Origin: Winogradskyella sp. PC-19
GTDB taxonomy: Bacteria; Bacteroidota; Bacteroidia; Flavobacteriales; Flavobacteriaceae
DNA: 64,000 bases
Direction: 5' to 3'
NCBI RefSeq assembly: GCF_002163855.1
Contig: NZ_CP019332.1
Location: forward strand, 2,831,145-2,895,144
A program made the position numbers and the translations under genes. The stretch's first letter is position 1; each line of letters opens with the position of its first letter. Below, piece by piece: positions 31,827 through 57,337 of this stretch. A model generated the notes under the pieces. It was not told the origin of the DNA, ran no database searches, and saw only the letters and a list, made by a program, of their open reading frames with translations.

Positions 31827-31833
31827 AGATAAC

Positions 31834-31967
31834 GTGTTCGTGTATGGTTTCGTTGCGTGGTTAAGTAACTAATTTAGCAAACAAATCACAGATAGAAAAT
31901 TCCAGCGAAATTTTAGTAATTCGCTAGTGACTTAGAAATAAACTATTATGCTTTGTAGTGACAAAAG
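31834..31967. repeat. Cassette-boundary site R1 (degenerate)
   Basis: The site begins after AAC with TGTTCGTGTATGGTTTCGTTGC, as other boundary sites do, and contains the small inner hairpin AAATTCC...GGAATTT-like segment in altered form. The right arm, expected to end TATACAC, is degenerate and no clear GTT start follows. It marks the left edge of the array. Confidence 0.55.
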
Positions 31968-32022
31968 TCATGAAAAAATAATACCAAGTTGAGTAAATTT
32001 AATAAATATAAAAGCAAAAAAA

Positions 32023-32406
32023 ATGTGGAAATATATATTAGCTTGGTTTCCAATGATTCTCGTTGCGATTGTCAACGGATTGTTTCGTGAGAAATTTTTA
32101 AAAGACCATTTGAATGAATTACAAGCTCATCAGATGTCTACCGCCAGTATGATTGTATTATTTGGTATATATGTTTGGGTATTGTTTAAGATATGGTTGC
32201 CAATATCGGTCAATCAAGCAGTTACTATAGGCGTGATATGGTTGGTTCTCACAATAATTTTTGAGTTTTTATTTGGGCATTACATTGCAGGACACAGTTG
32301 GGACAAGCTTTTACATGATTACAATCTTTTTCAGGGACGTGTTTGGATATTAGTCCTCATTTGGATATCTATTGTGCCGTATGTAATTTATCAACTGCAA
32401 AGGTAA
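32023..32406 (+). CDS. Small membrane protein, hypothetical
   Basis: The 127-residue protein has four predicted membrane helices (about 3-20, 42-60, 68-90, 105-122) and a conserved-looking N-terminus MWKYILAWFPMILVAIVNGLFREKFLKDHL. I cannot name the family or function. It stands between two degraded boundary sites near the left end of the array and is on the plus strand, unlike most cassette genes. Confidence 0.72.
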   Translation: MWKYILAWFPMILVAIVNGLFREKFLKDHLNELQAHQMSTASMIVLFGIYVWVLFKIWLPISVNQAVTIGVIWLVLTIIFEFLFGHYIAGHSWDKLLHDYNLFQGRVWILVLIWISIVPYVIYQLQR

Positions 32407-32407
32407 A

Positions 32408-32627
32408 GGTGAGGAGTATTTGCAAAACGCGATTCTACGTGCCGCAGGCAATTACTCACCAACGGTTTTGTATATGACTCGTAGCTTGTAAATTAGAAAA
32501 TTATTTTCAGATTAAGCACAAGCCAGATTTTTAAATTTTACTATTAGTCTTTTTTAAAAATTTGGCGACTTTACAAATATGCTATAACTTCGATTAAGCA
32601 ACTGAATAGCTATGAGTTATATACTGT
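32408..32627. repeat. Cassette-boundary site R2
   Basis: An internally deleted copy of the 74-bp gene-less module (GGTGAG ... AATTACTCACCAAC, to 32463) is followed by a 164-bp hairpin site. Its arms GTATATGACTCGTAGC and GCTATGAGTTATATAC pair over 16 positions, with G-T wobbles at stem positions 7 and 12 on the plus strand. Confidence 0.7.
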
Positions 32628-32824
32628 GTTACCCACCGTTTTTTACAGAAGCTTGTTAGTTTTTCGTAATGCATGAACTTCAATTATTTCGGTGATTAGT
32701 AAAGGCAATATATCAATTTTTCTTCTCTCTTTTTTCATTAAGAATATTTAGCCAACTAAAAAAAATGAAATATTTTGTGCTTTTTTAAAGTAAGTATATA
32801 CTAATAGAGTATAGCGAATAATTT

Positions 32825-33310
32825 ATGACACAAGAAAACAAATTTGTAGAAGTAATTCAAGACAATGAGGGAATCCTATACAAAATGACAAGGTTATATG
32901 CCAATGATAAGGATGACCAAAAGGACTTATATCAAGATATCGTATATCAGTTATGGAAATCTTTTAACACATTTAAAGGTGATGCAAAACTAAGTACTTG
33001 GATATATCGCATCGCACTAAATACATCGCTGTTATTTCTAAAGAATAAGAAAAGAAAAGGATACAAAACATCACTTGATGATTTAGCACTGATAGATGAA
33101 AATTACGACCCAGTTCTTGAAGAACGTCTTAAAATATTATACGCTCACATTAGAGAACTCGGTGAGGTTGATAAAGGAATTGTTTTTCTTTTTTTAGAGG
33201 GAAAAAAGTATGAAGAAATATCTGAAATAACAGGTATGTCTACCAGTAATGTTGGAACACGTATGGCAAGGATAAAAGAAAAATTGAACAAACAAATAAT
33301 AAAAAAATAA
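32825..33310 (+). CDS. ECF-type RNA polymerase sigma factor
   Basis: This is a 161-residue sigma-70 family (ECF) factor. Region 2 is DLYQDIVYQLWKSFNTFKGDAKLSTWIYRIALNTSL, with the -10-recognition helix. Region 4 is EVDKGIVFLFLEGKKYEEISEITGMSTSNVGTRMARIKEKL. It lies 4 bp upstream of a membrane protein that probably acts as its anti-sigma or signal partner. The same gene pair recurs at 49200-50331 and 62782-63895, so this is one of three paralogous units. Confidence 0.92.
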   Translation: MTQENKFVEVIQDNEGILYKMTRLYANDKDDQKDLYQDIVYQLWKSFNTFKGDAKLSTWIYRIALNTSLLFLKNKKRKGYKTSLDDLALIDENYDPVLEERLKILYAHIRELGEVDKGIVFLFLEGKKYEEISEITGMSTSNVGTRMARIKEKLNKQIIKK

Positions 33311-33314
33311 AATT

Positions 33315-33923
33315 ATGGAACTCGAAGAAATGCAAGCGACTTGGTCTCAAATGAGCAACCAACTTGATAATCAAAAAAAACTTACCGATAAGTTAATCAT
33401 GGAAATGACCAAAGAACGTTATAAAAATAAAATAGGTATACTATCAAAGTATGAAGGAATAGGTGCTATCATCTGTTTTATAATGGCTATTCTCCTCATT
33501 TCGCGGTTTTCTGTGTTGAATACGTGGTATTTATTGGCTTCTGGTATTTTTACTGTTTGTTATTTAATTGTTCTTCCAGTTATAGTGTTGCTTTCTATTA
33601 GAAGTATGAAAAGTATAGACTTAACGAATAACAATTACAAGCAAACTATTATAGCTTTTGCTGAAAAGAAAAGACATTTCCTGTTAACACAAAAAGTTGG
33701 TATCTACCTTAATTTTATTCTTATGGTAGTTAGTTTACCCGTTATTATTAAAGTATTTAAAGGAAAGGATATATTTATTACAAACATCAATTTGATTTAC
33801 TGGTACATTCCCATAATGGCAGTTTTTCTAATTCTATTTTCCATTTGGGGATATGGAAAATACAAAAAGGTAACGTCTTCCGCTTCTCATATTCTGGAAG
33901 AGCTTGAAGATACATCTTCTTAA
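33315..33923 (+). CDS. Membrane protein paired with ECF sigma factor
   Basis: The N-terminal 55 residues are charged and cytoplasmic (MELEEMQATWSQMSNQLDNQKKLTDKLIMEMTK...). Four membrane helices follow (about 52-70, 76-96, 128-148, 158-178). It lacks a zinc-binding anti-sigma HxxxCxxC motif. Position directly after the sigma gene, repeated in two other loci here, suggests that it controls the sigma factor, but this is inference. Homologues at 49200 and 62782 share the layout. Confidence 0.75.
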   Translation: MELEEMQATWSQMSNQLDNQKKLTDKLIMEMTKERYKNKIGILSKYEGIGAIICFIMAILLISRFSVLNTWYLLASGIFTVCYLIVLPVIVLLSIRSMKSIDLTNNNYKQTIIAFAEKKRHFLLTQKVGIYLNFILMVVSLPVIIKVFKGKDIFITNINLIYWYIPIMAVFLILFSIWGYGKYKKVTSSASHILEELEDTSS

Positions 33924-34022
33924 ACACCATTCACAGACTAATTTCATTAAAAAATTAACTTCAAAATTATGCTGAAAAATTTCAGCAAGGAATTTCTTAC
34001 ACTAATTTTTAAAATCAAAACT

Positions 34023-35420
34023 ATGAAAACAAATATAATCACAATCTGCTTATTTTTTCTAACACTGACCGTAGTTTCACAGAATATCACAGGTATTTGG
34101 AATGGCGCTATTGAAGTGGATAAAGACACGAAATTCAATTTCATATTTAGCATTAAAGAAGATGGAAAAGCGTATCAAACCACCATCGATATTCCAACAC
34201 AAAGAGTCAATGGAATAAAAGCAATAAAGACCTTGGTTAAAGGTGATAGCCTGATAATCGATTTGTCAAATGTAGGAATGAAGTATAGTGGAAAACTGAA
34301 TGCTAATCACACCTCAATAAAAGGTAAAATGGTTGAAGGCTTAAATTCTTTCACCCTAAATCTTTTAAGGAATTCGGTGTTAGAAACACCAAAAGTGAAT
34401 AGACCTCAAGAGCCTATAAAACCCTATTCCTATTTTGAAGAAAATGTAAGTTTCACCAATAAGGATGCCAATATAACACTGGCTGGTACATTTACTCGTC
34501 CTAATGGGAATAAAAAATATCCCGTAGCAATATTGATAAGTGGTAGTGGTCCGCAGGACAGAGACGAAACCATATCACAGCACAAACCTTTTCTGATTTT
34601 GGCAGATTACCTTACAAAACAAGGTATTGCCGTACTGCGCTATGACGATAGAGGATTTGGTGAATCAACTGGTAATCATTCTAAAGCGACTACTTACGAT
34701 TTTGCTTTAGACGTTATTAGTGCTATGGATTATTTAAGAACAAGGGACGACGTTGATGTAAATAAAATTGGTTTGATAGGGCATAGTGAAGGTGGCATCA
34801 TTGCTCCTTTAGTAGCCAATAAAGCCAAAGATGTTGCTTTTATCATTTCTCTTGCTGGAACGGGAATTTCTGGAACAGAACTTTCGGTCATGCAGTCCAA
34901 AACGATGCGTCCATTCCCTGTTCCTGATGAGGCAGTTTACGAAAAGGCAATTAGAGAAGCAATTGAAATTGCAAAACAGAATAAGGATGTTTCTGAAATA
35001 AAACCTGAATTAAAAGCACATTACAACGAAACTATTGCTCCCATACTCAAAAATCTTGGTGTGCCAGATGGTAAAATGAATGAAATTATTACGAGTTTGG
35101 TAGAGATGCGAACGACAAAATGGGTGCGGTATTTTTATGATTATAATCCAGCAAATGAATACGAAAAAGTGAATTGTCCTGTCCTTTCATTAAATGGTAG
35201 CTTAGATACACAAGTAGAAGCAAAGATTAACCAAGATGGTCTGCGCGAAGCATTAGTTAAAGGAAAAAATAAAGATTATGAAATCATTGAAATCAAAGGT
35301 CTTAATCATTTGTTCCAAAACGCCAAAACTGGTAAAATGGATGAATATTCTGATATTGAAGAGACGTTCTCTCCAAAAGTTCTTAATTTAATTTCTGATT
35401 GGATTTTGAAACGTGTATAA
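34023..35420 (+). CDS. Secreted alpha/beta hydrolase with N-terminal beta domain
   Basis: I use the ATG at 34023, because the product then starts with a normal signal peptide (MKTNIITICLFFLTLTVVSQ); an earlier ATG at 33969 would add 18 residues before it. Residues about 20-115 form a beta-rich domain (GIWNGAIEVDKDTKFNFIFSI). The alpha/beta hydrolase part has the oxyanion region SGSGPQDRDE, nucleophile elbow GHSEGG, acid region NGSLDTQVEAK and a C-terminal GLNHLFQ histidine. Esterase or peptidase activity is likely; the substrate is unknown. Confidence 0.88.
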   Translation: MKTNIITICLFFLTLTVVSQNITGIWNGAIEVDKDTKFNFIFSIKEDGKAYQTTIDIPTQRVNGIKAIKTLVKGDSLIIDLSNVGMKYSGKLNANHTSIKGKMVEGLNSFTLNLLRNSVLETPKVNRPQEPIKPYSYFEENVSFTNKDANITLAGTFTRPNGNKKYPVAILISGSGPQDRDETISQHKPFLILADYLTKQGIAVLRYDDRGFGESTGNHSKATTYDFALDVISAMDYLRTRDDVDVNKIGLIGHSEGGIIAPLVANKAKDVAFIISLAGTGISGTELSVMQSKTMRPFPVPDEAVYEKAIREAIEIAKQNKDVSEIKPELKAHYNETIAPILKNLGVPDGKMNEIITSLVEMRTTKWVRYFYDYNPANEYEKVNCPVLSLNGSLDTQVEAKINQDGLREALVKGKNKDYEIIEIKGLNHLFQNAKTGKMDEYSDIEETFSPKVLNLISDWILKRV

Positions 35421-35515
35421 GCACAATGAACTGTTTTTGTATGATAAATGCTTATACTATTGGATAAAACATAAGATAATTCGTGTTCGGGATTTTTTTT
35501 CAAATGGTGAGTAAC

Positions 35516-35861
35516 TTCCACTGTTTATGGCGAGTGAGGTGCGCCTCACGAGAAGCCATAATCGCGCCTCATTTGTTATACATACAGTTGTGTGTAGTTT
35601 CGTGAGGATTTCTCGTAGACTTGACTAAATATACAATAAAATTGGTAGGCGAGATTAACAGTTGACGTTGGTGAGTAATTAGTAGAAAGGGAGCGTTTGC
35701 AAAACGCGATTCTACGTGCCGCAGGCAATTACTCACCAACGTGTTTGTGTATGGTTAGTTGCGTGTTTAAGCAACTAATTTAGTAAACAAAAACGGACGC
35801 GAGAAAATTCCGAAGGAATTTTCCAAGTAGGCAACGACCAAAGCAATTAATTATACACGGT
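35516..35861. repeat. Cassette-boundary region R3 (long module, gene-less module, hairpin site)
   Basis: Three modules are chained. The long module (35516-35667) runs from TTCCACTGT to AACAGTTGACG. The 74-bp gene-less module (35667-35740) has arms GTTGGTGAGTAATT / AATTACTCACCAAC. The hairpin site (35741-35861) has arms GTGTATGGTTAGTTGC / GCAATTAATTATACAC and an inner AAATTCCGAAGGAATTT hairpin. Confidence 0.75.
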
Positions 35862-36641
35862 GTTATATGCAGGCTTTTTATTCTGTATTAAATCAGATAT
35901 AGCATTCCAAAGTTCAATTCGTTTTTCTAATGATTGTTTCGCTACATTTAGTGTTTCTTTCCATTTTTGCTCATCATCTTTACATAATTCACAAATCATC
36001 TCAAGAGATAGAGGACCGTGTTCATCTCCGTCAAGTTCAATATGTCGTTCGAGATAGTAATTTATTTTGCTGTATAGTTTGTTTTCAGAATCTGAATTTT
36101 TAAGAATTTCGATAAACATATCTGGAATAACGTCTTCTCGCCCAAACGTAAATGCAGAAGCTACTAGGTGTGGCTTATTTGTTTCAATAATCGAAAATGT
36201 GAATTTAACAAAATCAGCTACTCTGTTATCGACATTAACTTGACTAAAACAATAGTTAACTGAATTTCCTAATTCAATAAGTTTAATAAAATCATTGATT
36301 TCATTCGTATTTCCATTTACTTGGAACATTGCATCTAAATACATCTCAAAATGACTCTTTGGTTCTCCCAATTCATTAATGTCACTTTCTTCTCCATGAA
36401 CGATTTCATTTATAAATCTTGATAGTTTTGGGTTTTTTGGTGGTGTCCAGGGTGTTTGAACTTTAGTGAGGTTTAATTGAAGATTTTTTAAAAGAGACAT
36501 AAAATCCCATACTGCAAATACGTGATTTTCCATAAAAATTTTCACGTCATTAATGTTATGTAAATTTTCATAAAGTTTATGATTTTTCAATTCATTCCTT
36601 AATTCAGAAATCTCATTTTCTATATACTCTATTTTATTCAT
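35847..36641 (-). CDS. DUF3050 protein
   Basis: The 264-residue protein fits DUF3050, a haem-oxygenase-like all-helical family: [78 protein letters not shown] and [17 protein letters not shown]. Conserved His and Glu residues suggest a metal site, but no reaction is known. The last four codons and the stop lie inside the adjoining boundary site, beyond the cassette end GTTATATGCA, so the present C-terminus depends on what flanks the cassette. Confidence 0.88.
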
Positions 36642-36811
36642 TTTTTAATTTATCTATTAACTCTAAATGGTGTATATCGCAAATTTAATGCTAGAAAATG
36701 AAAATGTATTTAATCATAAATAAATATAATAAATGATTAAATAGCTAAAAGTTTTAGTAATCAAGAAAAGTATTTAGCTCTCGGTTGGTTGTTAGTGGGC
36801 TTGCATATAAC
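35862..36811 (-). mobile_element. Cassette C3: DUF3050 gene
   Basis: The ends are GTTATATGCAGGC and GCTTGCATATAAC, complementary over the outer ten bases and the terminal GC. One minus-strand gene occupies the cassette; about 160 bp upstream of it is AT-rich with no other gene seen. Confidence 0.7.
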
Positions 36812-37155
36812 GTCCACTGTGTATGGCGTAGTGAGGCGCGCCTCATGGAAAGCCATTGTTGCGCCTCATTAGCTATACACGCTGTTGTATGTAGTTTCGT
36901 GTGTAGTTCACGTAGACTTGACTAAATATACATAAAATCGGCGAGGTGCGACAAACAGTGGACGTTGGTATGTAATTAGTAGAAAGGAAGCGTTTGCAAA
37001 ACGCGATTCTACGTGCCGCAGGCAATTACATACCAACGGTTCAGTATAAGAGCAGTTGCGGATTCAAATTTGCTTACCTTTAATACTGCAAGATACTTAT
37101 TTAAACGTAAAAACGGTCTGAGGAAGCCCTCAAACCGCTATTGCTCTTATACAAT
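36812..37155. repeat. Cassette-boundary region R4
   Basis: The long module (36812-36964) is closed by TCCACTGT / ACAGTGGA. The gene-less module (36964-37037) has arms GTTGGTATGTAATT / AATTACATACCAAC. The hairpin site (37038-37155) has arms GTATAAGAGCAGTTGCGG / CCGCTATTGCTCTTATAC. It is a variant of R3 with compensating changes in the gene-less module arms. Confidence 0.75.
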
Positions 37156-37225
37156 GTTGTAAGTAGTTTTTTCTAGTTAAAAGAAAACCCAAATAATCTA
37201 TGATTAAGTAGGAACACTTGACACC

Positions 37226-37257
<32 letters not shown>

Positions 37258-37299
37258 GAATTATAAATATGGATGAATGGATTAAATTATAGTTACTAC

Positions 37300-38400
37300 T
37301 TAATCATTATTTAAAGGGGTTACTAACTCTATTTCTTGTTGTTTCCCTTTTAGAGTAATATTACCAGCAGACTTAAATTCTGTATCTAGAAATTTTTGAT
37401 CAATTTGTTTCATTAAATTATTAGATATTAATATATCAGTGTTCATTTCGTTACAAAGTGATTGTATCCTAGAAGCCGTGTTTAAAACATCCCCAGAATA
37501 CACAATTTCTCTTTTTACAATTCCCATTTCACCAGTAATAACATAACCAAAATGCAAGCCAGCTTTAAACTGAGGTTGTGCGTTATATTTTTCATCGAAA
37601 TAATTAGATTTATCTTTTAGTAGCGCTGTCATTTTATAAAAACAACTAATACAATGTGCTCTATTAATTCCGTTCTGTGTCAACCAAGTAATCACAATTT
37701 CATCACCAACGTATTGATAAATTTCTCCCTGAGCATCTAATATTCCTGGAGTCGCTATACTAAAGGTGTCATTCAGAAAATTGAAATAGCGCTCCTCACC
37801 AAGTCGTTCAGCAATAGTAGTAGACGACTTTAAATCCATAAACATGAAAATACGTTCTTCGCGTTTTGGTCTTAAGTATTTTCCTTTTAGAAAATTGACG
37901 AAGGTAATAGGGCCAAACTTATCTCTGATAAATAAGAATAAAATGGTCATAAAAGTAATAACAAGCCAATAGATATAGTTCGTCAAAAAAACCAGATTAA
38001 ATACTTCTTTAAATTTAAGCGCAAGGACCTCTACATCCATGGTTTGATTTGTGTTACTCAGCTTAATCATTCCTTGTTCTAAAGTGAATAAAATAAAAAA
38101 CATCAAGGTGTAAAACACCATAATGAAAAACATGGCTTTGAAGTAAGTCATTCTTCTCAGCCAACGCTCCCAAAGAAATACTAAACTGACTCCAACAAAT
38201 AAACCTGCAACAATTATAATAAGAATACTCGATACTATCCCTTCATTAAATTCTATAGAATCCTTATTGCTGGCATAGGTTTCAAAAAATCTAAATAATC
38301 GTATTAAAGTCCAGATTAAGGTTATCCATAAAACGGTTGTTATTTTTCCTTTAATGCTATAATGAGAAATTTTTTGTCTTAGGCTTGCGAATATATTCAT
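37300..38400 (-). CDS. Membrane-bound class III adenylate/guanylate cyclase
   Basis: The N-terminal half has four membrane helices (about 20-38, 52-75, 88-108, 135-160). A class III cyclase domain follows from about residue 188: the metal-binding FMDLKSSTTIAERLGEERYFNFLND, then GEIYQYVGDEIVITW with the second metal Asp, and VKREIVYSGDVLNTASRIQSLCNE. It is predicted to make a cyclic nucleotide at the inner membrane. Whether ATP or GTP is used cannot be read with confidence. It is the only gene of its cassette. Confidence 0.9.
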   Translation of the reverse strand: MNIFASLRQKISHYSIKGKITTVLWITLIWTLIRLFRFFETYASNKDSIEFNEGIVSSILIIIVAGLFVGVSLVFLWERWLRRMTYFKAMFFIMVFYTLMFFILFTLEQGMIKLSNTNQTMDVEVLALKFKEVFNLVFLTNYIYWLVITFMTILFLFIRDKFGPITFVNFLKGKYLRPKREERIFMFMDLKSSTTIAERLGEERYFNFLNDTFSIATPGILDAQGEIYQYVGDEIVITWLTQNGINRAHCISCFYKMTALLKDKSNYFDEKYNAQPQFKAGLHFGYVITGEMGIVKREIVYSGDVLNTASRIQSLCNEMNTDILISNNLMKQIDQKFLDTEFKSAGNITLKGKQQEIELVTPLNND

Positions 38401-38547
38401 GGATGATTTTTATTGATTTGTTATGTCCATTTATTACATTAATGAAAGTCAATGTTATTTTAATTACTAGTTTTCTGTGAAAACAACTACCTAAAACAAA
38501 TAATAAGATGATTAAATACCTGTAAATTAATTCACATTACTTACAAC

Positions 38548-38889
38548 GTCCACTGTGTATGGCGAGTGAGGCGCGCCTCACGAGAAGCCATAATCGCGTC
38601 TCATTTGTTATACATACAGTTGTATGTAGTTTCGTGTGTAGTTCACGTAGACTTGACTAAATATACATAAAATCGGCGAGGTGCGACAAACAGTGGACGT
38701 TGGTATGTAATTAGTAGAAAGGAAGCGTTTGCAAAACGCGATTCTACGTGCCGCAGGCAATTACATACCAACGGTTAGTATATGAAAAGTAGGCGATTTC
38801 GAAGAACTAAACTCTGCGTAAAGTACAAAGTTTGATACGATCCAAAGGCATTGATTTTACTAATATTTCGCCTATTTTTTTTATATTTT
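38548..38889. repeat. Cassette-boundary region R5
   Basis: The long module (38548-38699) contains the 16-bp palindrome GTGAGGCGCGCCTCAC. The gene-less module (38699-38772) is of the GTATGTAATT type. The hairpin site (38773-38889) has arms GTATATGAAAAGTAGGCGA / TCGCCTATTTTTTTTATAT with plus-strand wobbles at stem positions 7 and 12. Confidence 0.75.
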
Positions 38890-40589: not shown

Positions 40590-40797
40590 GTTGGCAATAG
40601 TTATTTTTTATAAACAGAAACATTTAAATGTACATTTTTTTATTTGAAATTTAAAAAAGTGTCATTCTTATTTTGAAGTGTTAGGCTAGAACTAGATTTT
40701 GATTAAAATTGATGTATAAAAATGATTATGTGTTCAGTAAGACTATATTGGGAAAATCTAATATGTATTAAAGATGTTGGCATTGCCTTTTATGGTA

Positions 40798-48583: not shown

Positions 48584-48636
48584 GTTGTGCTTAGTATTAT
48601 ATTTAGATGAATTTTTTAGTTTAATTCATCTATTAA

Positions 48637-49089: not shown

Positions 49090-49199
49090 AATTTTTACTG
49101 TTTTCTTGGTTAGTGGCTTAATACAAAAAATATTACACTTAAAACTTTTTTTTTGAAAACATTTAAAAAGTAATATAATCAAGACCTATTACGAAGTTT

Positions 49200-50331: not shown

Positions 50332-50429
50332 TAGTGTTCTTTTTATTGGTTAGTGGCTAAAATTTGGAATTATTACAGACAAATGGCAAAATTGTAAATG
50401 AATATTTTTTGAGAGATATTAAGCACAAC

Positions 50430-50546
50430 GTTGTTGTATATGGTTTGTTGCGGATAAATCCGCGAGGATTTTCCGCTATATTGATTTGTCTTAAAGGTAG
50501 GAATTTTTCTTTGTTTTAACCAGCTGAGCAATTTACTATACACGTT
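50430..50546. repeat. Cassette-boundary site R9
   Basis: This is a single hairpin site without the long and gene-less modules. The arms GTATATGGTTTGTTGC and GCAATTTACTATACAC pair imperfectly, with wobbles at positions 7 and 12, and enclose an inner AAATCCGCGAGGATTTT hairpin. Confidence 0.72.
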
Positions 50547-51328
50547 GTTGTGCTTTCGTTATTCGCTGTTAGAAGCTAAAAGATTTAAAACCAATTCGGT
50601 TTGTTGCAATACATTGTCTGTTAATTCTATATACCTTGAAATGGTGTAACGTTCTTGTATCAAATGATTCACTAAATCTTTTGGTAAATCATTTACTTTT
50701 ACATTTTTCCACAAGAGTTTGTGTGTAGCATTATTATCTAAAGGATTTCCAATGGTTGGATATTTACTTCCAAGGTTTAGCATAAAGTCTAAGAGGAGAC
50801 CTTTATTACCATTTTGTACAGTTTTTTCAGTTGTTTGAAGTCGATTTAATTCCATAAGTTCTTTTCTTAGGTCTTTATCGAACAAATCTATTTTTCCACT
50901 AGATATGAGTAAATTGAAACTATTGGTATTGTAAACATTGGTGACTCTAATTCCAACAAATTCATTATTGTAGAGTTTATAATAACTTTCTAGATTATTA
51001 AAATGCCCATTTTCGATACTATCACCAAGTGAGTTAATCCTTTCAATTCTGAGATTGTTTCTTAAAAGACGAGCATTAATTTGAATTGTATCTTTTGTGT
51101 AATCATTAATTAAGGCTGTTTTGTATTCGTTTTTTAGAGTTTCTTTTTTTCTGTTTTCATTCCAATTATTAATCTGTAATGCAATCAGAATACCAATTAC
51201 AACAAGTACAATTTCGCCAATTGCATACTTAAAATACTTTCCAGTTTTGTTTTCCATTAGCAAGTTTTGTCTTATTCTTCTAAAGAATTTTATCATTGGT
51301 TATTGGTTGGTTATAATGAAGCATAAAC
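50547..51328 (-). mobile_element. Cassette C9: DUF6090 gene
   Basis: The left end is GTTGTGCTTTC and the right end is GAAGCATAAAC, an imperfect complement. Only the three bases GTT separate it from cassette C10, so the hairpin between them has been lost. Confidence 0.6.
50559..51296 (-). CDS. DUF6090 family protein
   Basis: This is the first of three consecutive DUF6090 proteins in the window. The N-terminal 48 residues (MIKFFRRIRQNLLMENK, then TGKYFKYAIGEIVLVVIGI and LIALQINNWNEN) are almost the same in all three and contain one membrane helix. The following 195 residues are helical and strongly diverged. The likely topology is a short cytoplasmic N-terminus and a large external C-terminal domain. 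No function is known. Confidence 0.85.
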   Translation of the reverse strand: MIKFFRRIRQNLLMENKTGKYFKYAIGEIVLVVIGILIALQINNWNENRKKETLKNEYKTALINDYTKDTIQINARLLRNNLRIERINSLGDSIENGHFNNLESYYKLYNNEFVGIRVTNVYNTNSFNLLISSGKIDLFDKDLRKELMELNRLQTTEKTVQNGNKGLLLDFMLNLGSKYPTIGNPLDNNATHKLLWKNVKVNDLPKDLVNHLIQERYTISRYIELTDNVLQQTELVLNLLASNSE

Positions 51329-51331: not shown

Positions 51332-52139
51332 GTTGTGCTTTCGTTATTTTAATTCATTATTTATTAAATCAATCAAATCGAGCGTTCTTTCTTTGTCTTC
51401 TTTAAACCATTGAATTATAGCTTGAGTTGAGAGTAATTTTACTTTAATAATATTAACAGTTTCGAAAAGTATATCTTTTTGTAACAAGTTAATGTTTGTT
51501 TGCTCTAGTTGTCTTGGGTAAGTTTCATTCATTTTAAAACTCTTAGTTATACTTGGATATGTTAAGTCAATGTTTTTAAGGAAAATTGGATTTATAACTA
51601 AATCTTTTACATCGTTATTTTTTTGAACTACCAATTCTCTTCGTTCAATATGTTGGTAATACTTTACAATTTCATCTCGAATTTCTCCATTATTAATGAT
51701 TCCAATATCACCAGTTGATAATAATTGCGTGTAAGTTGTACGATTAGCTAAAAATGTAGTTCTGTCAAATACACTTCCAAAATAATTAAGAGTTGTGTCA
51801 TTTAAATCGAACCTTTTATTTTTATTGTAAATTGATACTAGTTTTTGAATATCAAATAGATTCTCATTTTCCTCATTTAAATGATAATCTAAATTGATTA
51901 ATTGTTGATTTAAATCGTTTACTATGCTTTCTAAATATTTCTCTTGTTTGGCATTATTAACCTGCTTTCCATACCAACTATTTATTTGAAGAGCAATCAA
52001 AATTCCAATAACCACGAGAACAATTTCTCCAATTGCGTATTTAAAATACTTTCCATTTTTATTTTCCATAAGCAAGTTTTGGCGGATTTTTCTAAAGAAT
52101 TTTATCATTGGTTAAAGATTGGTTATAATGAAGCACAAC
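51332..52139 (-). mobile_element. Cassette C10: DUF6090 gene
   Basis: The ends are GTTGTGCTTTC and GAAGCACAAC, complementary apart from one extra T. It has the same end word as C9 and C11, which suggests that the three cassettes share an origin. Confidence 0.65.
51344..52108 (-). CDS. DUF6090 family protein
   Basis: The conserved N-terminus (MIKFFRKIRQNLLMENK, one membrane helix at about 27-44) is followed by a diverged helical domain (NAKQEKYLESIVNDLNQQLINLDYHLNEENENLF...). It is 254 residues long. The leader contains repeated AACCA words before the ATG, as in the other two DUF6090 cassettes. Confidence 0.85.
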   Translation of the reverse strand: MIKFFRKIRQNLLMENKNGKYFKYAIGEIVLVVIGILIALQINSWYGKQVNNAKQEKYLESIVNDLNQQLINLDYHLNEENENLFDIQKLVSIYNKNKRFDLNDTTLNYFGSVFDRTTFLANRTTYTQLLSTGDIGIINNGEIRDEIVKYYQHIERRELVVQKNNDVKDLVINPIFLKNIDLTYPSITKSFKMNETYPRQLEQTNINLLQKDILFETVNIIKVKLLSTQAIIQWFKEDKERTLDLIDLINNELK

Positions 52140-52533
52140 GCAGCGCTATGTGCAGTTCTGCGTTTGGATTTAGTTTTTGTGTATCGAAGATACGATAAAA
52201 AGTAAATACAATAGAGCAGACCAAATTGCATTTAGCGACCTGATATGTACAGTTTTCCTCGATGGCACGTAAAAGTGATAATAAGCTATATGCCTAACGC
52301 CTACACCTAATGCAATTTGACATAGCGCTGCGATGATGTACATATCTCAAAGGGCGGGAATCGAGGAACGAGATGTAGCAATTTGAGTTCACTTTTGGGT
52401 GAATTGTACATCATCGGTTTTGTATATGTTTTGTTGCGTGGTTTAAGCACCGAATTTAGCAAATAAAAACCGAATAGAAAATCCGCGAGGATTTTCGTAA
52501 GTAGGCTAGAACTAGCAATAAATTATACACGTT
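52140..52533. repeat. Cassette-boundary region R11 with duplicated 282-bp block
   Basis: Two nested palindromic modules, closed by CGCAGCGCTATG / CATAGCGCTGCG (52139-52332) and CGATGATGTACA / TGTACATCATCG (52331-52416), are followed by a standard hairpin site (52417-52533). The block 52135-52416 recurs without a difference at 55175-55456, but there it is followed by other modules. Confidence 0.8.
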
Positions 52534-53322
52534 GTTGTGCTTTCGTTTTTTTAATTTACGATTTAATCATTAACTATTCTAATTTAATTGTTTGTCAATC
52601 ATATCCATAATTTCTACAAACTCATTTCTTAAAGCAGGACCTTCTTCAAAAATCCCTTGTAATGCAAAGCCTATATAAATCATTTGATTTTGAAATTCCC
52701 TAGACGGAATAACTTTTAAATAATTGATACTGTCCTTAACACGTTCTTCCTTTGTTCTGGGACGTTTATAAAATGAAAATGTTTTAACAAAATAAGGTTC
52801 CACATTTTGAGTAGTGTAATCTAGAGCAAACTGTTCATCATCTAAATAATCAACAATTACATCTTTTAATTTAGCAATTCTAATTTTTAGCTCATAATTA
52901 CTTATGAGTTCAATTTTACCAGAATTAATTATTGAATTATAAATACCGCTACTGGGATTAAATGTCCAACTCCAATCTGCTTTATTGATTAAAGAATCTT
53001 GACTATCGAAACTTTCAAATCTTGGATCTAAATCTATTAACCTATTTAATATACTATCTCTTACTATATGATAGGTGTAGATACTATCAAATTTCACAAT
53101 GTTTTCTTCTAACTCGGAGCGTAAACTTTGAAGCATTTTTTGCTCTTCGGAATCAATGTTTTGTTGCTGATTCCAATTATTGATTTGCAATGCGATTAGA
53201 ATTCCAATCACGACAAGAATGATTTCTCCAATGGCGTATTTAAAGTATTTGCCAGTTTTGTTTTCCATAAGCAAGTTCTGTCTAATTTTCCGAAAGAATT
53301 TTATCATTGGTTAGTGGTTAGT
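52534..53322 (-). mobile_element. Cassette C11: DUF6090 gene (right end damaged)
   Basis: The left end is GTTGTGCTTTC. The expected right end GAAGCACAAC and the long module are missing; the gene leader, with three TTAGTGG words, runs directly into a gene-less module. Confidence 0.55.
52579..53307 (-). CDS. DUF6090 family protein
   Basis: This is the third DUF6090 copy, with the conserved N-terminal block (MIKFFRKIRQNLLMENK, then an IALQINNWN end) and a diverged C-terminal domain (SLRSELEENIVKFDSIYTYHIVRDSILNRLIDLDPRFES...). Length 242. The leader is CCACTAACCACTAACCAATG. Confidence 0.85.
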   Translation of the reverse strand: MIKFFRKIRQNLLMENKTGKYFKYAIGEIILVVIGILIALQINNWNQQQNIDSEEQKMLQSLRSELEENIVKFDSIYTYHIVRDSILNRLIDLDPRFESFDSQDSLINKADWSWTFNPSSGIYNSIINSGKIELISNYELKIRIAKLKDVIVDYLDDEQFALDYTTQNVEPYFVKTFSFYKRPRTKEERVKDSINYLKVIPSREFQNQMIYIGFALQGIFEEGPALRNEFVEIMDMIDKQLN

Positions 53323-53512
53323 GGTATGTAATTAGTAGAAAAGGAGCGTTTGCAAAACGCGATTCTACGTGCCGCAGGCAATTACATACCAACGGTCTCG
53401 TATAACCGGCAGTTACGGGTTTATATGCATTATTTTTCGGTTTAGGACTGACGTTCGCAATTCCGAGTGGATTCGGATGTAGTCGAATCCGCCGTAATTG
53501 CGGTTATACATT
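53323..53512. repeat. Cassette-boundary region R12
   Basis: A gene-less module with a damaged left arm (53323-53393, GTATGTAATT type) is followed by a hairpin site whose arms GTATAACCGGCAGTTACGG and CCGTAATTGCGGTTATAC pair with one bulged G. The long module is absent. Confidence 0.72.
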
Positions 53513-54503
53513 GTTGTAGGTAGTTTTCAATTAGTGATTCATTCATTACTACAATATATCAATGTCTATCAAATTCAACAGATTTTACTTTGTTTATAAC
53601 CTCTGCACTTATCCAATATATGTTTGATAAACCACCTTCTTCGTCATATCTACTGAAAAATAAATATTTACCATCTGGAGTAAGACTCGGACACGTTTCA
53701 GCGAATTTAGAATTTACAGCGTCCCCAAGGTTGATTGGTTTTGACCATGTTCCGTCTTTATCCTTAAAACAAACATGAATATCTCTGTCTTTTGTCTCTT
53801 CATTTTCTTTTTGAGCATCTACTAGTATAAAGTCTTGAGAAGGGGAAATAAAACCGTGACCTCCATATTCAATTCCAACTTCATGTACTTCGGGAAATTC
53901 ACCATTCTTATTTGGAGCATAATACATCTTCCATTGTGAAATACTCGTATAAAATAAGTCACCATTCTCAGAGGTATTTGAGTAAAAAACAATGTCATCA
54001 TTAATTGGTGAATCAAGTTTTATCGCTTCACTCCAAGAATTCTCTAAACGGTTTACATACCAAATATTCTCATCTGAAAAAATTGAGTCATATGCAGTGA
54101 AAAAAATCTTTTCACCATTGAGACTAACGAAACCTTCAAGTTCATTTTTTTTCTTTCCTTTTGTAAAGTTTGCTATTTTAGGAGTAGACCATTTTTCGTC
54201 TTTGAGTCTTGAGAAATATACAACTTGAGGCTTCTCTTCTTTATTCCCAGAAAAATACATTTCATTCATATCAGGAGAAAACGAAACTGCATATTCATAT
54301 CTTCCATTTACCGAAACAATTTCAGGAGCGAAAATTTCAGCAGTCGTTCCAGGTGGTTTTTGCCCAAAATATGAAACTTCTATAATTTTTGAATCTGAAC
54401 TTTTAGATTGATTCTTTTTATTGCAAGCATTAAAAAAAACTACTATTGTAATTGATAAGAGAGATATTTGAAAATTTCGCATGATGTTTAAATTACCTAC
54501 AAC
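53513..54503 (-). mobile_element. Cassette C12: PD40 lipoprotein
   Basis: The ends GTTGTAGGTA and TACCTACAAC are perfect reverse complements around one minus-strand gene. Confidence 0.72.
53559..54482 (-). CDS. PD40 (WD40-like) beta-propeller lipoprotein
   Basis: A lipoprotein signal (TIVVFFNAC) is followed by repeated PD40 blades: YAVSFSPDMNEMYFSGNKEEK, FVSLNGEKIFFTAYDS, GHGFISPSQDFILVDAQKENEETKD and CPSLTPDGKYLFFSRYDEEGG. TolB-like propellers of this type bind partners or ligands in the periplasm or on the surface. No catalytic domain is attached. Function unknown beyond the fold. Confidence 0.87.
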   Translation of the reverse strand: MRNFQISLLSITIVVFFNACNKKNQSKSSDSKIIEVSYFGQKPPGTTAEIFAPEIVSVNGRYEYAVSFSPDMNEMYFSGNKEEKPQVVYFSRLKDEKWSTPKIANFTKGKKKNELEGFVSLNGEKIFFTAYDSIFSDENIWYVNRLENSWSEAIKLDSPINDDIVFYSNTSENGDLFYTSISQWKMYYAPNKNGEFPEVHEVGIEYGGHGFISPSQDFILVDAQKENEETKDRDIHVCFKDKDGTWSKPINLGDAVNSKFAETCPSLTPDGKYLFFSRYDEEGGLSNIYWISAEVINKVKSVEFDRH

Positions 54504-54542
54504 GATTTGTGTAAAATGCGTTTTAATGCATTTTTACACTTT
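54504..54542. repeat. Minimal cassette-boundary site R13
   Basis: This is the shortest site of the array: 39 bp between TACCTACAAC and GTTGTAAAAC. The arms GTGTAAAATGC and GCATTTTTACAC enclose a short loop. With the flanking end words it has the size of a small integron attC site. Confidence 0.75.
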
Positions 54543-55179
54543 GTTGTAAAACGTTACTTCAATATTTTTCTTTCGTTGACAACCTTGTCAATATTAATTT
54601 TAACTTCAGATTTTTGATTCATTGAGAAATCAATTTCATCTACAAAACCGAGGTGCTGTATAATATAGTCCTCTTCTAAAAAAGATCTTTGGCCTCTCAT
54701 AAAACCCCAAGTATCATATTTATAATTTGATCGATACCTAATCGTTTTATTTGGTTTGATTTCTGCAACTTTATGTGCAGACCTTTCTGGTGACGGTATT
54801 TCTAAGAACGATACATTTTTTGAAGAAATTACGTGTATTTCAAATAACGAGTCTTTAATTCTTCTAATTTTTAATGAACCTAATTTCAGAAATAGATGAT
54901 TTTTAGGATACATTGAAATATAAGATTTGTCTTCCCTGTTATCTTCACTTATAACAATTAAGCCAATTGATTTATTTAGTATGATTTCGGGTTTTAATTC
55001 TTTTAATAAGAAAAGTCTGTTTTCAATCTTTAATGCACAAGAAGAATGAGATTCATTCGCCCAGTTATTAAGTAACTTCTATACCCAGAATCGTACGATG
55101 ATTTCATTCTTCTTTCGCTGTTATCAAATATCCTAATGAGTTCTATCATATTTTAAGACGGGTCAAAATGTTTTACAAC
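54543..55179 (-). mobile_element. Cassette C13: broken gene
   Basis: The ends GTTGTAAAAC and GTTTTACAAC are perfect reverse complements. The only gene is frameshifted. Confidence 0.72.
54554..55149 (-). pseudogene. Frameshifted gene of unknown family
   Basis: An ATG-initiated frame gives MIELIRIFDNSERRMKSSYD and ends soon after. A second frame, open from a TAG at 55079-55081, continues with KLLNNWANESHSSCALKIEN, ELKPEIILNKSIGLIVISED and MYPKNHLFLKLGSLKIRRIK to a normal stop. The shift lies at about 55076-55081. Joined, the product would be about 198 residues, cytoplasmic and without a recognised family. An internal ATG at 54911-54913 could give a shortened 119-residue protein. Confidence 0.65.
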
Positions 55180-55798
55180 GCAGCGCTATGTGCAGTTCTG
55201 CGTTTGGATTTAGTTTTTGTGTATCGAAGATACGATAAAAAGTAAATACAATAGAGCAGACCAAATTGCATTTAGCGACCTGATATGTACAGTTTTCCTC
55301 GATGGCACGTAAAAGTGATAATAAGCTATATGCCTAACGCCTACACCTAATGCAATTTGACATAGCGCTGCGATGATGTACATATCTCAAAGGGCGGGAA
55401 TCGAGGAACGAGATGTAGCAATTTGAGTTCACTTTTGGGTGAATTGTACATCATCGTCCACTGTGTATGGCGTAGTGAGGCGCGCCTCATGGAAAGCCAT
55501 TGTTGCGCCTCATTAGCTATACACGCTGTTGTATGTAGTTTCGTGTGTAGTTCACGTAGACTTGACTAAATATACATAAAATCGGCGAGGTGCGACAAAC
55601 AGTGGACGTTGGTATGTAATTAGTAGAAAGGAAGCGTTTGCAAAACGCGATTCTACGTGCCGCAGGCAATTACATACCAACGGCCGGTATAAGAATAGTT
55701 GCGGGTTTGCGTGGCTAGAATTTCCGAAGGAAAAACAGATGTAGCAAACAAGCAACTACCTTAGTTATAGGACTAAACCGCAATTATTTTTATACATT
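55180..55798. repeat. Cassette-boundary region R14 (five chained modules)
   Basis: This is the longest boundary. The two-module 282-bp block (to 55456), identical to that of R11, is followed by the long module (55456-55608), the GTATGTAATT-type gene-less module (55608-55681) and a hairpin site (55682-55798). The hairpin arms GTATAAGAATAGTTGCGG and CCGCAATTATTTTTATAC have plus-strand wobbles at positions 7 and 12. Confidence 0.8.
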
Positions 55799-55887
55799 GT
55801 TGTAGCCAGTATTTTTATTCAATTATTCTTTAATCTTCTCTATTGAACAATTTAAGTTTTTTACTTTCGGAATTTCACGAAAGGAAC

Positions 55888-57195
55888 TTACTCTTTAATC
55901 AACCTATAAGTCTCTATTGATCCATTATCTCTAGATTTTACTTTTAATAGGTAAATTCCTGTTTTAAATGAGGATAAATCAATTTTTATATTATTGGTGG
56001 TTAATACCTTCTTGCCTAGCATATCATATAGTTCTACATTTAGTAAATTGTTACTGATCAAATTAATAAAACCTTTTGTAGGGTTAGGATAGATTTTTAC
56101 TGTATTTATTTCTTCGTCTATTATACTTAGTGCGCTACATGCTTCTGTAATATCATTACAGCCTGTATTATTATTCGATATAGTTATATTTGAGTTAGAA
56201 CCATTACATATGTAGTCAATATTACAATTAGTTAAATTACTATTGTTTTGAATGTAAAAATTATTTGAAACTGTTACTAAGGCGTTTAATCCTGTGATAT
56301 CCGTTAAGCTTGCATTGTTTTCGAGAAAGAAATTACTCCCAATGGTTGCTAAACTAGATAGACCTGTTAAAGAAGTAAGCCCTCCGTTATCTTTTAAGTA
56401 AAAACTTAATCCTATAGAAGTTAGTCCGTTTAAGGCGCTTATATCCGTTAAGCTTGCATTGTTTTCGAGAAAGAAATTACTCCCAATGGTTGCTAAACTA
56501 GATAGACCTGTTAAAGAAGTAAGCCCTCCGTTATCTTTTAAGTAAAAACTTAATCCTATAGAAGTTAGTCCGATTAAGGCGCTTATATCCGTTAAGCTTG
56601 CATTGTTTTCGAGAAAGAAATTACTCCCAATGGTTGCTAAACTAGATAGACCTGTTAAAGAAGTAAGCCCTCCGTTATCTTTTAAGTAAAAACTTAATCC
56701 TATAGAAGTTAGTCCGTTTAAGGCGCTTATATCCGTTAAGCTTGCATTGTTTTCGAGAAAGAAATTACTCCCAATGGTTGCTAAATTAGATAGACCTGTT
56801 AAAGAAGTAAGTCCTACATTATCTTTTAAGTAAAAACTTAATCCTATAGAAGTTAGTCCGTTTAAGGCGCTTATATCCGTTAAGCTTGCATTGTTTTCGA
56901 GAAAGAAATTACTCCCAATGGTTGCTAAATTAGATAGACCTGTTAAAGAAGTAAGTCCTACATTATCTTTTATAAAAACGGAATTATTTACTGATGTTAT
57001 ACTTGATAATGGGCTAAGGTTGGTAGCATTAGTACCCTCTATTTTTAAACTATTATTTAACTGTGTACAATTAGGATAGTTAGTTGAAAAATTGTCAATA
57101 TCATTTTGACTAGATAAAACAATATCTGAATTTGGACATTGAGAAAAACAGTTAAATGAAATAAAGAAAATTGTTAAAATTGTTAGTGTTTTCAT
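55888..57195 (-). CDS. Leucine-rich-repeat surface protein with type IX sorting domain
   Basis: After a signal peptide (ILTIFFISFNCFSQ) the protein consists of short LRR-like strands such as LTSLTGLSNLATIGSNFFLENNASLTDISALNG, arranged in units of 48 residues repeated about five times. A Cys-containing cap (NCNIDYICNGSNSNITISNNNTGCNDI) follows. The C-terminal 75 residues are a type A T9SS sorting domain: VKIYPNPTKGFINLIS ... VELYDMLGKKVL ... FKTGIYLLKVKS. It should be secreted by the type IX system and anchored to or released from the cell surface. It could bind ligands or other cells. Confidence 0.9.
   Translation of the reverse strand: MKTLTILTIFFISFNCFSQCPNSDIVLSSQNDIDNFSTNYPNCTQLNNSLKIEGTNATNLSPLSSITSVNNSVFIKDNVGLTSLTGLSNLATIGSNFFLENNASLTDISALNGLTSIGLSFYLKDNVGLTSLTGLSNLATIGSNFFLENNASLTDISALNGLTSIGLSFYLKDNGGLTSLTGLSSLATIGSNFFLENNASLTDISALIGLTSIGLSFYLKDNGGLTSLTGLSSLATIGSNFFLENNASLTDISALNGLTSIGLSFYLKDNGGLTSLTGLSSLATIGSNFFLENNASLTDITGLNALVTVSNNFYIQNNSNLTNCNIDYICNGSNSNITISNNNTGCNDITEACSALSIIDEEINTVKIYPNPTKGFINLISNNLLNVELYDMLGKKVLTTNNIKIDLSSFKTGIYLLKVKSRDNGSIETYRLIKE
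56308..57027 (-). repeat. 144-bp tandem repeats inside the LRR gene
   Basis: The word GCTTGCATTGTTTTCGAG recurs at 56308, 56452, 56596, 56740 and 56884, an exact period of 144 bp or 48 codons. The three left copies are almost identical (for example GTTAGTCCGATTAAG against GTTAGTCCGTTTAAG), which indicates recent unequal exchange or slippage. Confidence 0.93.
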
Positions 57196-57337
57196 GTTTA
57201 TTTAAAAATTGGATTATTAAAATATACTATTTATTTTGATGGTAATTTGCAATTCATATTGGCTACAACTAGTTATAAACCTATATTATGACTTGTTTTA
57301 TCCGTAAGTCTTTCTACTAATTTTCAAATTCTTAAAT

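What the first reader, a model, noticed from the sequence alone, without database searches (positions are those of the whole stretch)
31831..57268. A 25-kb integron-like cassette array with oversized recombination sites and no integrase in view
Between two ordinary chromosomal regions lie about 14 unrelated accessory gene units separated by repeats of one family. The unit ends, the site folding and the one-or-few-genes-per-unit organisation follow integron logic. Site size (39-619 bp), chained modules and the host phylum differ from well-known integrons. The cargo is typical adaptive content: sigma factors, hydrolases, cyclase, surface proteins and unknown families. I know of no described system with exactly this architecture, but I cannot search the literature.
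Basis: partly seen in the sequence, partly recalled or inferred. Interest (0 to 1): 0.92.

Follow-up and report, generated by a model that had tools for sequence, protein, structure and literature searches.

The report
Integron-like cassette array without integron-type integrase
A marine flavobacterium carries a chain of exchangeable gene cassettes that behaves like an integron, but its relatives run the same chains with a recombinase lacking the part thought to define integron enzymes, and the cassettes seem to mark the strand to be used in an unfamiliar way.

Summary
Window 31,831-57,269 is a cassette array at a place without such sites in 11 of 16 related genomes. Twelve sites of one family (E<1e-4) lie in it and none in the flanks. 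Eight cassettes have matching, cassette-specific ends. The organism is Winogradskyella or close kin.

In relatives, the same site family sits beside a tyrosine recombinase: divergently in 14 of 16 loci of one orthologue group, 12 with a first cassette starting at an attI-like junction. A co-directional form occurs elsewhere in Bacteroidota. These recombinases keep the catalytic residues but lack the ~42-residue insertion of integron integrases, and fall outside the IntI clade.

The sites form a covarying 16-bp stem without bulged bases. Two stem positions are G.T on the bottom strand, A.C on the top, each in 47 of 48 sites. At position 11 of a 14-bp cassette-specific outer stem, 101 of 101 starts carry A, unmatched by the end; 87 are A.C/G.T.

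Best reading: an insertion-less integron lineage of Bacteroidota that probably selects the bottom strand by wobble pairs rather than extrahelical bases. Recombination is inferred, not shown. Eight paper searches found no description.

The parts
57250..57269 (-). right end of the array: attI-like junction ..GTTTATAACTA^GTT, 69 bp past the stop of a peptidase M3 gene; no integrase beside it
   Evidence: resembles the junction TATATAACTA^GTT behind the integrase in L197
55799..57269 (-). cassette 1: LRR-type protein with type IX sorting tail (55888-57195)
   Evidence: ends GTTGTAGCCAATAT / GTTGTAGCCAGTAT; Pfam
55679..55801 (+). attC-like site, bottom strand
   Evidence: R1 E=4.6e-15
55453..55678 (+). 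non-coding repeat unit (module A+B)
   Evidence: repeat families D2-D5; R1 weak, E=0.13
55152..55451 (.). 300-nt non-coding repeat, 97% identical to 52112-52411
54543..55179 (-). cassette: 119-aa ORF of unknown family
   Evidence: ends GTTGTAAAAC..; no Pfam hit
54501..54545 (+). short attC-like site, 45 nt
   Evidence: R1 E=6.7e-5
53513..54503 (-). cassette: PD40 protein
   Evidence: ends GTTGTAGGTA..; Pfam
53391..53515 (+). attC-like site
   Evidence: R1 E=7e-9
52579..53307 (-). DUF6090 unit, ends decayed
   Evidence: Pfam
52413..52536 (+). attC-like site
   Evidence: R1 E=1.3e-21
52112..52411 (.). 300-nt non-coding repeat
51344..52108 (-). DUF6090 unit; the site between it and the next unit is reduced to a few bases near 51315
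   Evidence: Pfam; sequence
50559..51296 (-). DUF6090 unit
   Evidence: Pfam
50427..50549 (+). attC-like site
   Evidence: R1 E=8.9e-12
48584..50429 (-). cassette with three genes (48637, 49200, sigma factor 49840); its body matches a chromosomal block, mostly without sites nearby, in other Winogradskyella
   Evidence: ends GTTGTGCTTA.. 10/10
48466..48586 (+). attC-like site
   Evidence: R1 E=1.9e-14
48242..48465 (+). non-coding repeat unit
47620..47748 (+). attC-like site, 129 nt, degraded
   Evidence: R1 E=6.9e-5
40590..47622 (-). 7.0-kb cassette: cystatin-like protein, two amidohydrolases, META/DUF4377 protein, two unknown ORFs
   Evidence: ends GTTGGCAATAATTA / GTTGGCAATAGTTA 10/10; Pfam
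40468..40592 (+). attC-like site
   Evidence: R1 E=2.5e-22
40243..40467 (+). non-coding repeat unit
38901..40289 (-). ADP-ribosylglycohydrolase unit, no matching ends found
   Evidence: Pfam
38770..38892 (+). attC-like site
   Evidence: R1 E=1.8e-6
38545..38769 (+). non-coding repeat unit
37156..38547 (-). cassette: guanylate/adenylate cyclase catalytic domain protein
   Evidence: Pfam
37035..37158 (+). attC-like site
   Evidence: R1 E=8.7e-12
36809..37034 (+). non-coding repeat unit
35862..36811 (-). cassette: DUF3050 protein
   Evidence: Pfam
35738..35864 (+). attC-like site
   Evidence: R1 E=2.5e-21
35512..35737 (+). non-coding repeat unit
32628..35515 (-). cassette holding three genes in the reverse orientation (sigma factor 32825, 33315, hydrolase 33969, all +)
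   Evidence: Pfam
32461..32630 (+). attC-like site, 170 nt, found by stem structure; R1 match partial and weak
   Evidence: R1 E=0.059 for 32461-32542
31831..31957 (+). left-end attC-like site, 3' half decayed
   Evidence: R1 E=9.1e-12

Best explanation
The array is a cluster of mobile gene cassettes of an integron-like system found in Bacteroidota. Inferred cycle: a cassette exists as a circle with one site. The bottom strand of that site folds into a hairpin with a 14-bp outer stem specific to the cassette (GTT + 7 variable bases + a wobble + 3), a 3/6-nt internal loop and a 16-bp inner stem with conserved G.T wobbles. A tyrosine recombinase without the IntI insertion cuts at the GTT and joins the cassette to a double-stranded attI-like site (consensus near ..TATATAAnTG^TT) or to a secondary site resembling it. 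The A.C mismatches on the top strand and G.T pairs on the bottom strand tell the enzyme which strand to use, in place of the extrahelical bases of classical attC sites. In the window the cassettes sit at an attI-like place behind a peptidase gene, with no integrase beside them, so they were inserted or are maintained in trans, or a neighbouring integrase was lost. Shown here: the sites, their covariation and strand asymmetry, the end rule, the linkage to the recombinase and attI in relatives, and different cassette starts after one shared junction. Inferred: the enzyme acts on these sites, single-strand use, and wobble-based strand choice.
For: Sites: in 48 sites picked from the lists the inner stem is more stable on the bottom strand in 47; positions 7 and 12 are G.T on the bottom strand in 47 of 48 each. 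In 38 aligned sites 96.9% of stem cells pair, 9 of 16 pairs show double changes, 0 of 500 shuffles reach this, and slid controls give 28-45%. Ends: 65 cassettes of relatives match at 5.9 of 7 variable positions against 2.7 (sd 0.18) in 2000 permutations; position 11 is A at all 65 starts and never matches. The same holds for 36 of 36 further cassettes, all from co-directional loci. Integrase: one orthologue group in 14 of 299 Flavobacteriaceae genomes, the query's own among them, clearly separated from the next matches. Adding G008 and G009, 14 of 16 loci have R1 sites next door on the divergent side, one of them weak (L107, E=5e-4); the other two have only 1.5-1.7 kb left before a contig end. 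In 12 of 16 the first cassette starts at the attI-like GTT with matching ends; random windows gave 18 hits of 180. Co-directional kin: 13 of 20 loci scanned have 2 or more rule-obeying end pairs in the integrase's sense. Mobility: R1 sites lie near the same peptidase gene in 5 of 16 species and not in 11; three of the five share the junction ..TATCCAATT^GTT followed by different cassette starts. The residues taken as catalytic (roles recalled) are invariant in 19 of 19.
Against: No recombination was observed. No genome is held for the window, so its own integrase is unknown. Four of 16 divergent loci gave no matched first cassette, and 9 of 20 co-directional loci gave none; 4 of 20 co-directional loci showed no rule-obeying ends at all. 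Hit counts include cross-pairs between near-identical cassettes. The sites were collected largely with a consensus that already contained the A.C mismatches; the independent support is the structure-only search and position 11 outside the model, where 14 of 101 ends are C or T, not the G of a wobble. The perfect 14-bp ends of the non-coding repeat unit break the mismatch rule. The canonical-IntI control loci may simply hold no arrays. The branch uniting the insertion-less tribe has modest support (84/60). NCBI already names such proteins 'site-specific tyrosine recombinase/integron integrase', so a link to integrons has been suspected at least in annotation.
Confidence: 0.82

Rival explanations
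1. An ordinary CALIN of the known integron family: canonical attC cassettes moved by a canonical IntI, here separated from its integrase.
For: Canonical IntI is common in Bacteroidota (105 of 395 genomes over the cut-off). The sites share AAC/GTT ends and hairpin form with attC.
Against: R1 finds no site at E<=0.1 in 252.7 kb around 14 canonical IntI genes of Bacteroidota, and the end rule gives 2 sense hits and 1 opposite there. The recombinases next to these arrays lack the IntI insertion and lie outside the IntI clade. None of the nine genomes carrying the window's repeat had a TIGR02249 match over the cut-off.
Confidence: 0.1
2. The repeats are MITE- or REP-like elements that spread into intergenic gaps; the genes between them are not mobile units.
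For: The non-coding repeat unit and the 300-nt repeat occur in several similar copies, and a 20-base core of the former occurs in 19 stretches of other genomes, mainly Winogradskyella and Algibacter.
Against: The inverted ends belong to the gene-bearing units, not to the repeats: left and right ends of the same unit match each other and not those of other units. Different units follow one conserved junction in three species.
Confidence: 0.04
3. The hairpins act in RNA, as terminators or regulatory elements behind each gene.
For: Sites sit just behind stop codons in a mostly co-oriented array, and the stem covaries.
Against: The transcript of the cassette genes is the top strand, in which the conserved positions are A.C mismatches; the better pairing strand is the opposite one. 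RNA function does not explain cassette-specific inverted ends. Rfam at gathering scores finds only a tRNA in the window.
Confidence: 0.03

Closest known systems
Sedentary chromosomal integrons and CALINs with IntI (Vibrio, Xanthomonas; IntegronFinder definition)
   Same: Arrays of mostly co-oriented cassettes, hairpin sites with invariant AAC/GTT ends, an attI-like site next to a tyrosine recombinase, arrays without integrase at other places, varied accessory cargo.
   Different: The recombinase lacks the IntI-specific insertion and carries an extra N-terminal domain; there are no extrahelical bases in the inner stem; G.T wobbles mark the bottom strand; the cassette-specific outer stem is 14 bp, not the 7-bp R box (7 bp recalled); a 7-kb cassette and one with reversed genes in the window.
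Treponema integrons
   Different: Treponema intI belongs to the IntI family (recalled); the integrases here are insertion-less.
IS91-associated tyrosine recombinases
   Same: Insertion-less relatives: a Bradyrhizobium plasmid copy, 36.8% identical over 76% of L045's enzyme, precedes an IS91 transposase and lacks the insertion.
   Different: No cassette array or attI-like site was looked for at that copy; many of the Bacteroidota enzymes here are tied to arrays.
XerA/XerC/XerD recombinases
   Same: Same catalytic core and same lack of insertion; best NCBIfam model for all 8 proteins scanned is recomb_XerA_Arch, over its cut-off for some. In Foldseek XerA 5hxy and IntI 2a3v are nearly tied (E 5.9e-16 and 8.2e-16), with the higher TM-score for IntI.
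   Different: Extra N-terminal domain, SPLD-like C terminus (as in IntI), linked to cassette arrays; action at dif was not examined.

Membership tests
Integron (IntI type) | Integrase with the IntI-specific additional domain in the catalytic domain | tested here: not met
   58-59 residues between GKxKDR and HxLRH in the 23 of 26 group A and B enzymes the script could measure, 100 in the 5 of 17 IntI it could measure; the printed alignment shows the gap or insertion in the others. No match over the TIGR02249 cut-off in 9 genomes. Tested in relatives only; the window has no integrase and its genome is not held.
Integron (IntI type) | Integrase falls in the IntI clade | tested here: not met
   17 IntI rows form one side of a 100/100 branch; all 26 group A and B rows lie on the other side. 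Two of these 26 (L192, L194) showed one or no rule-obeying cassette.
Integron (IntI type) | attC sites: imperfect palindromes, AAC..GTT, single-strand hairpin | tested here: met
   Predicted structure and covariation.
Integron (IntI type) | Extrahelical bases in the attC stem that set strand choice (PMC2727003, passages) | tested here: not met
   The 16-pair inner stem aligns without a gap in 38 of 38 sites, 608 of 608 cells with letters. The outer stem was compared without gaps only; some cassettes, such as the DUF6090 units, show a one-base shift there.
Integron (IntI type) | attI site beside the integrase at which the first cassette starts | tested here: met
   Matched first cassette in 12 of 16 divergent and 11 of 20 co-directional loci; in one of the 11 (L180) the junction is not attI-like. 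Relatives only.
Integron (IntI type) | Cassettes excise as circles and reinsert at attI | not testable with these tools
   Needs an experiment; indirect support.
Integron (IntI type) | Cassette promoter Pc and SOS control of the integrase | not tested
   An inverted repeat between integrase and attI was noticed by eye; it does not look like the Bacteroidetes SOS motifs reported in PMC8565304 (passages).
CALIN (attC cluster without integrase) | At least two attC sites less than 4 kb apart, no integrase nearby | tested here: met
   12 sites at E<1e-4; all neighbours are under 4 kb apart except the two that bound the 7-kb cassette. IntegronFinder itself was not run, so recognition as attC by that tool is untested.
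Functional analogue of an integron | Precise gain or loss of whole cassettes between GTT and AAC | tested here: inconclusive
   Between species: sites near the peptidase gene in 5 of 16, none in 11; three species share a junction followed by different cassette starts. The far ends of those first cassettes were not checked, and strains of one species could not be compared.

The most novel reading that the evidence does not exclude
Bacteroidota possess a second class of integrons, run by recombinases that never had the IntI insertion, either an independent invention from Xer-like enzymes or the surviving ancestral form. Bottom-strand choice is encoded by conserved G.T wobbles in the inner and outer stems, and new cassettes can arise from resident operons, as the sigma-factor operon in this window suggests.
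Probability: 0.5. Interest if true: 0.93.

Novelty: new variant of a known kind. Interest (0 to 1): 0.86.

Why it matters
Two surveys whose passages I read recognise integron integrases by the IntI-specific domain (PMC9668308, PMC2426708), which is described as essential for integron function (PMC8138268, passage), so a system without it would be missed by such a search. Here sites were found in all 68 Winogradskyella genomes searched (E<=1e-4; only one match in two of them) and in at least 58 of 296 Bacteroidota genomes (E<=1e-6), meaning a large cassette pool may lie outside current catalogues. The wobble marks give a clean, testable alternative to extrahelical bases for single-strand recombination, and the insertion-less enzymes bear on how integrons arose.

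Tried and rejected
Rejected: canonical CALIN, MITE/REP repeats, RNA elements; see rivals.

Led nowhere: eight literature searches for this system gave no description in their listings; 'integron' with 'Winogradskyella' gave 0 papers. The repeat between integrase and attI did not look like the reported Bacteroidetes SOS motifs. Pfam gave no family for the N-terminal domain: 0 families for three of four fragments and one weak hit below cut-off. The predicted structure (mean pLDDT 85.6, pTM 0.54) was searched against PDB only with Foldseek, which gave no separate answer for the N-terminal domain. First scans on the 5' side of distant homologues found nothing because their arrays lie on the 3' side (against 69). 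TIGR02249 at E<=1e-5 also matches in 14 of 14 control genomes, so such a match alone means only a tyrosine recombinase. L185, L187, L194 and L196 gave no rule-obeying ends, and L184, L188 and L192 one each.

Dropped rows: only neighbouring R1 sites 150-6000 bp apart with intact GTT and AAC were counted (65 and 36 pairs). X_L042 was first read from a wrong ORF and replaced before the tree. The measured loop lengths are missing ('None') for 3 of 26 group A and B rows and 12 of 17 IntI rows, whose motif the script did not match.


Full report
What is in the window. The window holds ordinary flavobacterial genes up to a glyoxalase gene (31470-31826) and again from a peptidase M3 gene (57338-59518). 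Between them lie 25 kb of accessory genes and repeats. A 20-base core of the commonest repeat occurs in 19 stretches of other genomes, titled Winogradskyella (14), Algibacter (4) and one unclassified Bacteroidia bacterium. The peptidase gene is 89% identical to its nearest relative among 68 Winogradskyella genomes, so the organism is Winogradskyella or close kin. No whole genome is held for the window.

The place in relatives. Twenty kb around the peptidase gene were read in 16 Winogradskyella genomes. The glycine transporter gene that precedes the glyoxalase in the window lies in the same stretch in 12 of 16; in four of these (L115, L116, L117, L122) 0.5-0.6 kb separate it from the peptidase, against 25.9 kb here. 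R1 sites at E<=0.1 occur in 5 of 16 stretches (L119, L120, L121, L123, L128) and in none of the other 11. In L119, L120 and L121 the same flank, ending ..TATCCAATT^GTT, is followed by three different cassette starts, each with A at position 11. This is a difference in cassettes at one junction, between species; the far ends of these first cassettes were not checked.

The sites. The 48 core sites aligned are 121-127 nt, from AAC to GTT. A structure-only search found six of the window's sites among 8 hits in the array, and 1 chance hit in 37.4 kb of flank. The model R1, built from 38 sites with the 16-bp stem only, gives 12 window sites at E<1e-4, all on one strand and all inside the array; six of them were used to build it. 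Its stem covaries strongly: 96.9% of cells pair, 9 of 16 pairs have double changes, and 0 of 500 shuffles reach any of the five measures. No gap occurs in the stem in any of the 38 sites, so there are no extrahelical bases in it.

Strand asymmetry. In 48 sites the bottom-strand stem is more stable in 47, and the whole site in 42. Stem positions 7 and 12 are G.T on the bottom strand in 47 of 48 sites each; on the top strand these are A.C mismatches. The collection largely used a consensus containing these bases, so this figure alone is not independent. The independent evidence lies outside the model. At position 11 of the cassette ends the start is A in 65 of 65 cassettes from arrays of Winogradskyella, Algibacter and other Flavobacteriaceae, and in 36 of 36 from co-directional loci. 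The end never matches it. It is G in 55 of 65 and 32 of 36, which makes G.T on the bottom and A.C on the top strand; in the other 14 of 101 it is C or T.

Cassette ends. Beyond GTT, positions 4-10 match between the two ends of one cassette at 5.9 of 7 on average, against 2.7 (sd 0.18, 2000 permutations) between ends of different cassettes; positions 12-14 match too. The ends are therefore a 14-bp inverted repeat special to each cassette, as expected if both came from one circular site. In the window 8 cassettes meet the strict rule, among them one of 7.0 kb and one whose three genes run against the array.

The recombinase. A search with the integron integrase model TIGR02249 in nine genomes that carry the window's repeat gave matches in all nine, none over the cut-off (0 of 9); the 14 control genomes match at this level too. 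Of 11 loci fetched around the best matches, five (L040, L043, L044, L045, L047) carry stretches like the window's repeats beside the recombinase. In W. litoriviva (L040) and in L045 the gene faces away from the array, and an attI-like sequence CACTTKCGTATATATAAGTG^TT lies between. The orthologue group has 14 genomes at E<=1e-136 in 299 Flavobacteriaceae, the query's own included; the next match is at 2e-74. With G008 and G009, 16 loci of this group were read. Fourteen have R1 sites on the divergent side, one of them weak (L107, E=5e-4); the other two (L041, L098) have only 1.5-1.7 kb before a contig end. In 12 of 16 the first cassette starts at the attI-like GTT with matching ends, against 18 of 180 random windows in the loci of both groups. 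By eye 15 of 16 have an attI-like sequence; that of L098 is broken.

A co-directional form. More distant homologues in Bacteroidota, and a Chryseobacterium plasmid, have the array behind the 3' end of the integrase. Of 20 such loci scanned, 13 have two or more rule-obeying end pairs in the integrase's sense, 3 have one and 4 none; hits in the other sense total 2. Some of these counts include cross-pairs between near-identical cassettes. A matched first cassette is seen in 11 of 20, at an attI-like junction in 10. This layout is known for Treponema integrons (PMC3607928, passages). In Winogradskyella, three recombinase types are present in 13, 27 and 22 of 68 genomes, together 56 of 68 by my count. 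For the second and third type the link to arrays rests on close kin (L197/L198 and L191) and on coordinates, for example sites behind the gene in G036, G041, G020 and G037. Sites occur in 68 of 68 genomes, with at most 52 candidates scored in each. In the phylum, 58 of 296 genomes have a site at E<=1e-6, a lower bound as at most 11 candidates per genome were scored.

Not IntI. The enzymes of the two groups have 58-59 residues between the GKxKDR motif and HxLRH (23 of 26 measured); canonical IntI have 100 (5 of 17 measured); the printed alignment shows the same for the rest. The solved IntI (2a3v) aligns with one of them in two pieces around this insertion. In a tree of 52 rows, 17 IntI, including 14 from Bacteroidota, are one side of a branch with 100/100 support; the 26 group A and B rows are on the other side. 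The branch uniting these 26 with four other recombinases and an IS91-associated one has only 84/60 support, and the program warns of long branches. So separateness from IntI is well supported, while independent origin is open. R213, K238, H302, R305, H328 and Y337, taken as the catalytic set, are invariant in 19 of 19. A predicted model has a small alpha-beta N-terminal domain of about 60 residues before the core; Pfam gave no family for it.

Controls. R1 finds nothing at E<=0.1 in 252.7 kb around 14 canonical IntI genes of Bacteroidota, and the end rule gives 2 sense and 1 opposite hit there. It was not checked whether those loci hold arrays of canonical cassettes.

How it probably works. The most economical reading is an integron cycle on the bottom strand, with the strand marked by wobble pairs. 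In classical attC the strand is chosen mainly by extrahelical bases (PMC2727003, passages). The joint absence of extrahelical bases and of the IntI insertion is consistent with this; that the insertion's helix contacts those bases in 2a3v is recalled, not read here. Active recombination was not shown.

Origin of a cassette. The three-gene sigma-factor cassette (48584-50429) matches, at 75-82% identity, a block in ten fetched loci of other Winogradskyella. The block covers the cassette body almost exactly. Nine of these ten loci, which reach about 1.5 kb beyond the block at most, hold no R1 site at E<=0.01; one has a site about 1.2 kb away. Either a resident operon became a cassette, or a cassette settled and lost its site.

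Literature. Passages of nine papers were read, none whole. IntegronFinder 2 names one complete integron in Bacteroidetes, in Salinibacter ruber (PMC9024848). The archaeal survey and an early survey define IntI by the additional domain (PMC9668308, PMC2426708). A review lists Bacteroidota among phyla with integrons (PMC8618304). [quoted passage not shown] The attC model paper lists 11 taxa, none of them Bacteroidetes (PMC8352920). None of the eight searches listed a description of this system; subscription papers and preprints were not searchable. Against novelty, NCBI names such proteins 'site-specific tyrosine recombinase/integron integrase'.

Noticed in passing
window 48584-50429; L228-L237: The sigma-factor operon cassette corresponds to a chromosomal block, mostly without sites nearby, in other Winogradskyella species: a possible case of cassette birth or of a settled cassette.
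   Followed up: partly
16 integrase loci, e.g. L102, L103, L044, L107: Many, about ten of 16 by eye and with variations, have an inverted repeat like TTTTGTATATC..GATATACAAAAT between the integrase start and attI, a possible operator; it does not look like the reported Bacteroidetes SOS motifs.
   Followed up: no
window 35512-35737, 36809-37034, 38545-38769, 40243-40467, 48242-48465, 55453-55678: Six copies of a non-coding unit with perfect inverted ends (GTTGGTATGTAATT or GTTGGTGAGTAATT and complement). They lack the position-11 mismatch and might be orientation-neutral non-coding cassettes.
   Followed up: partly
window 56139-57002: A 144-nt tandem repeat inside the LRR-type protein gene, up to 98% identical between units.
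   Followed up: no
e.g. L199-L210: Canonical IntI over the family cut-off in 105 of 395 Bacteroidota genomes, more than the published passages I read suggest.
   Followed up: no
L047 11184-11681: The integrase next to an array of seven R1 sites in Algibacter marinivivus is broken by stop codons.
   Followed up: no
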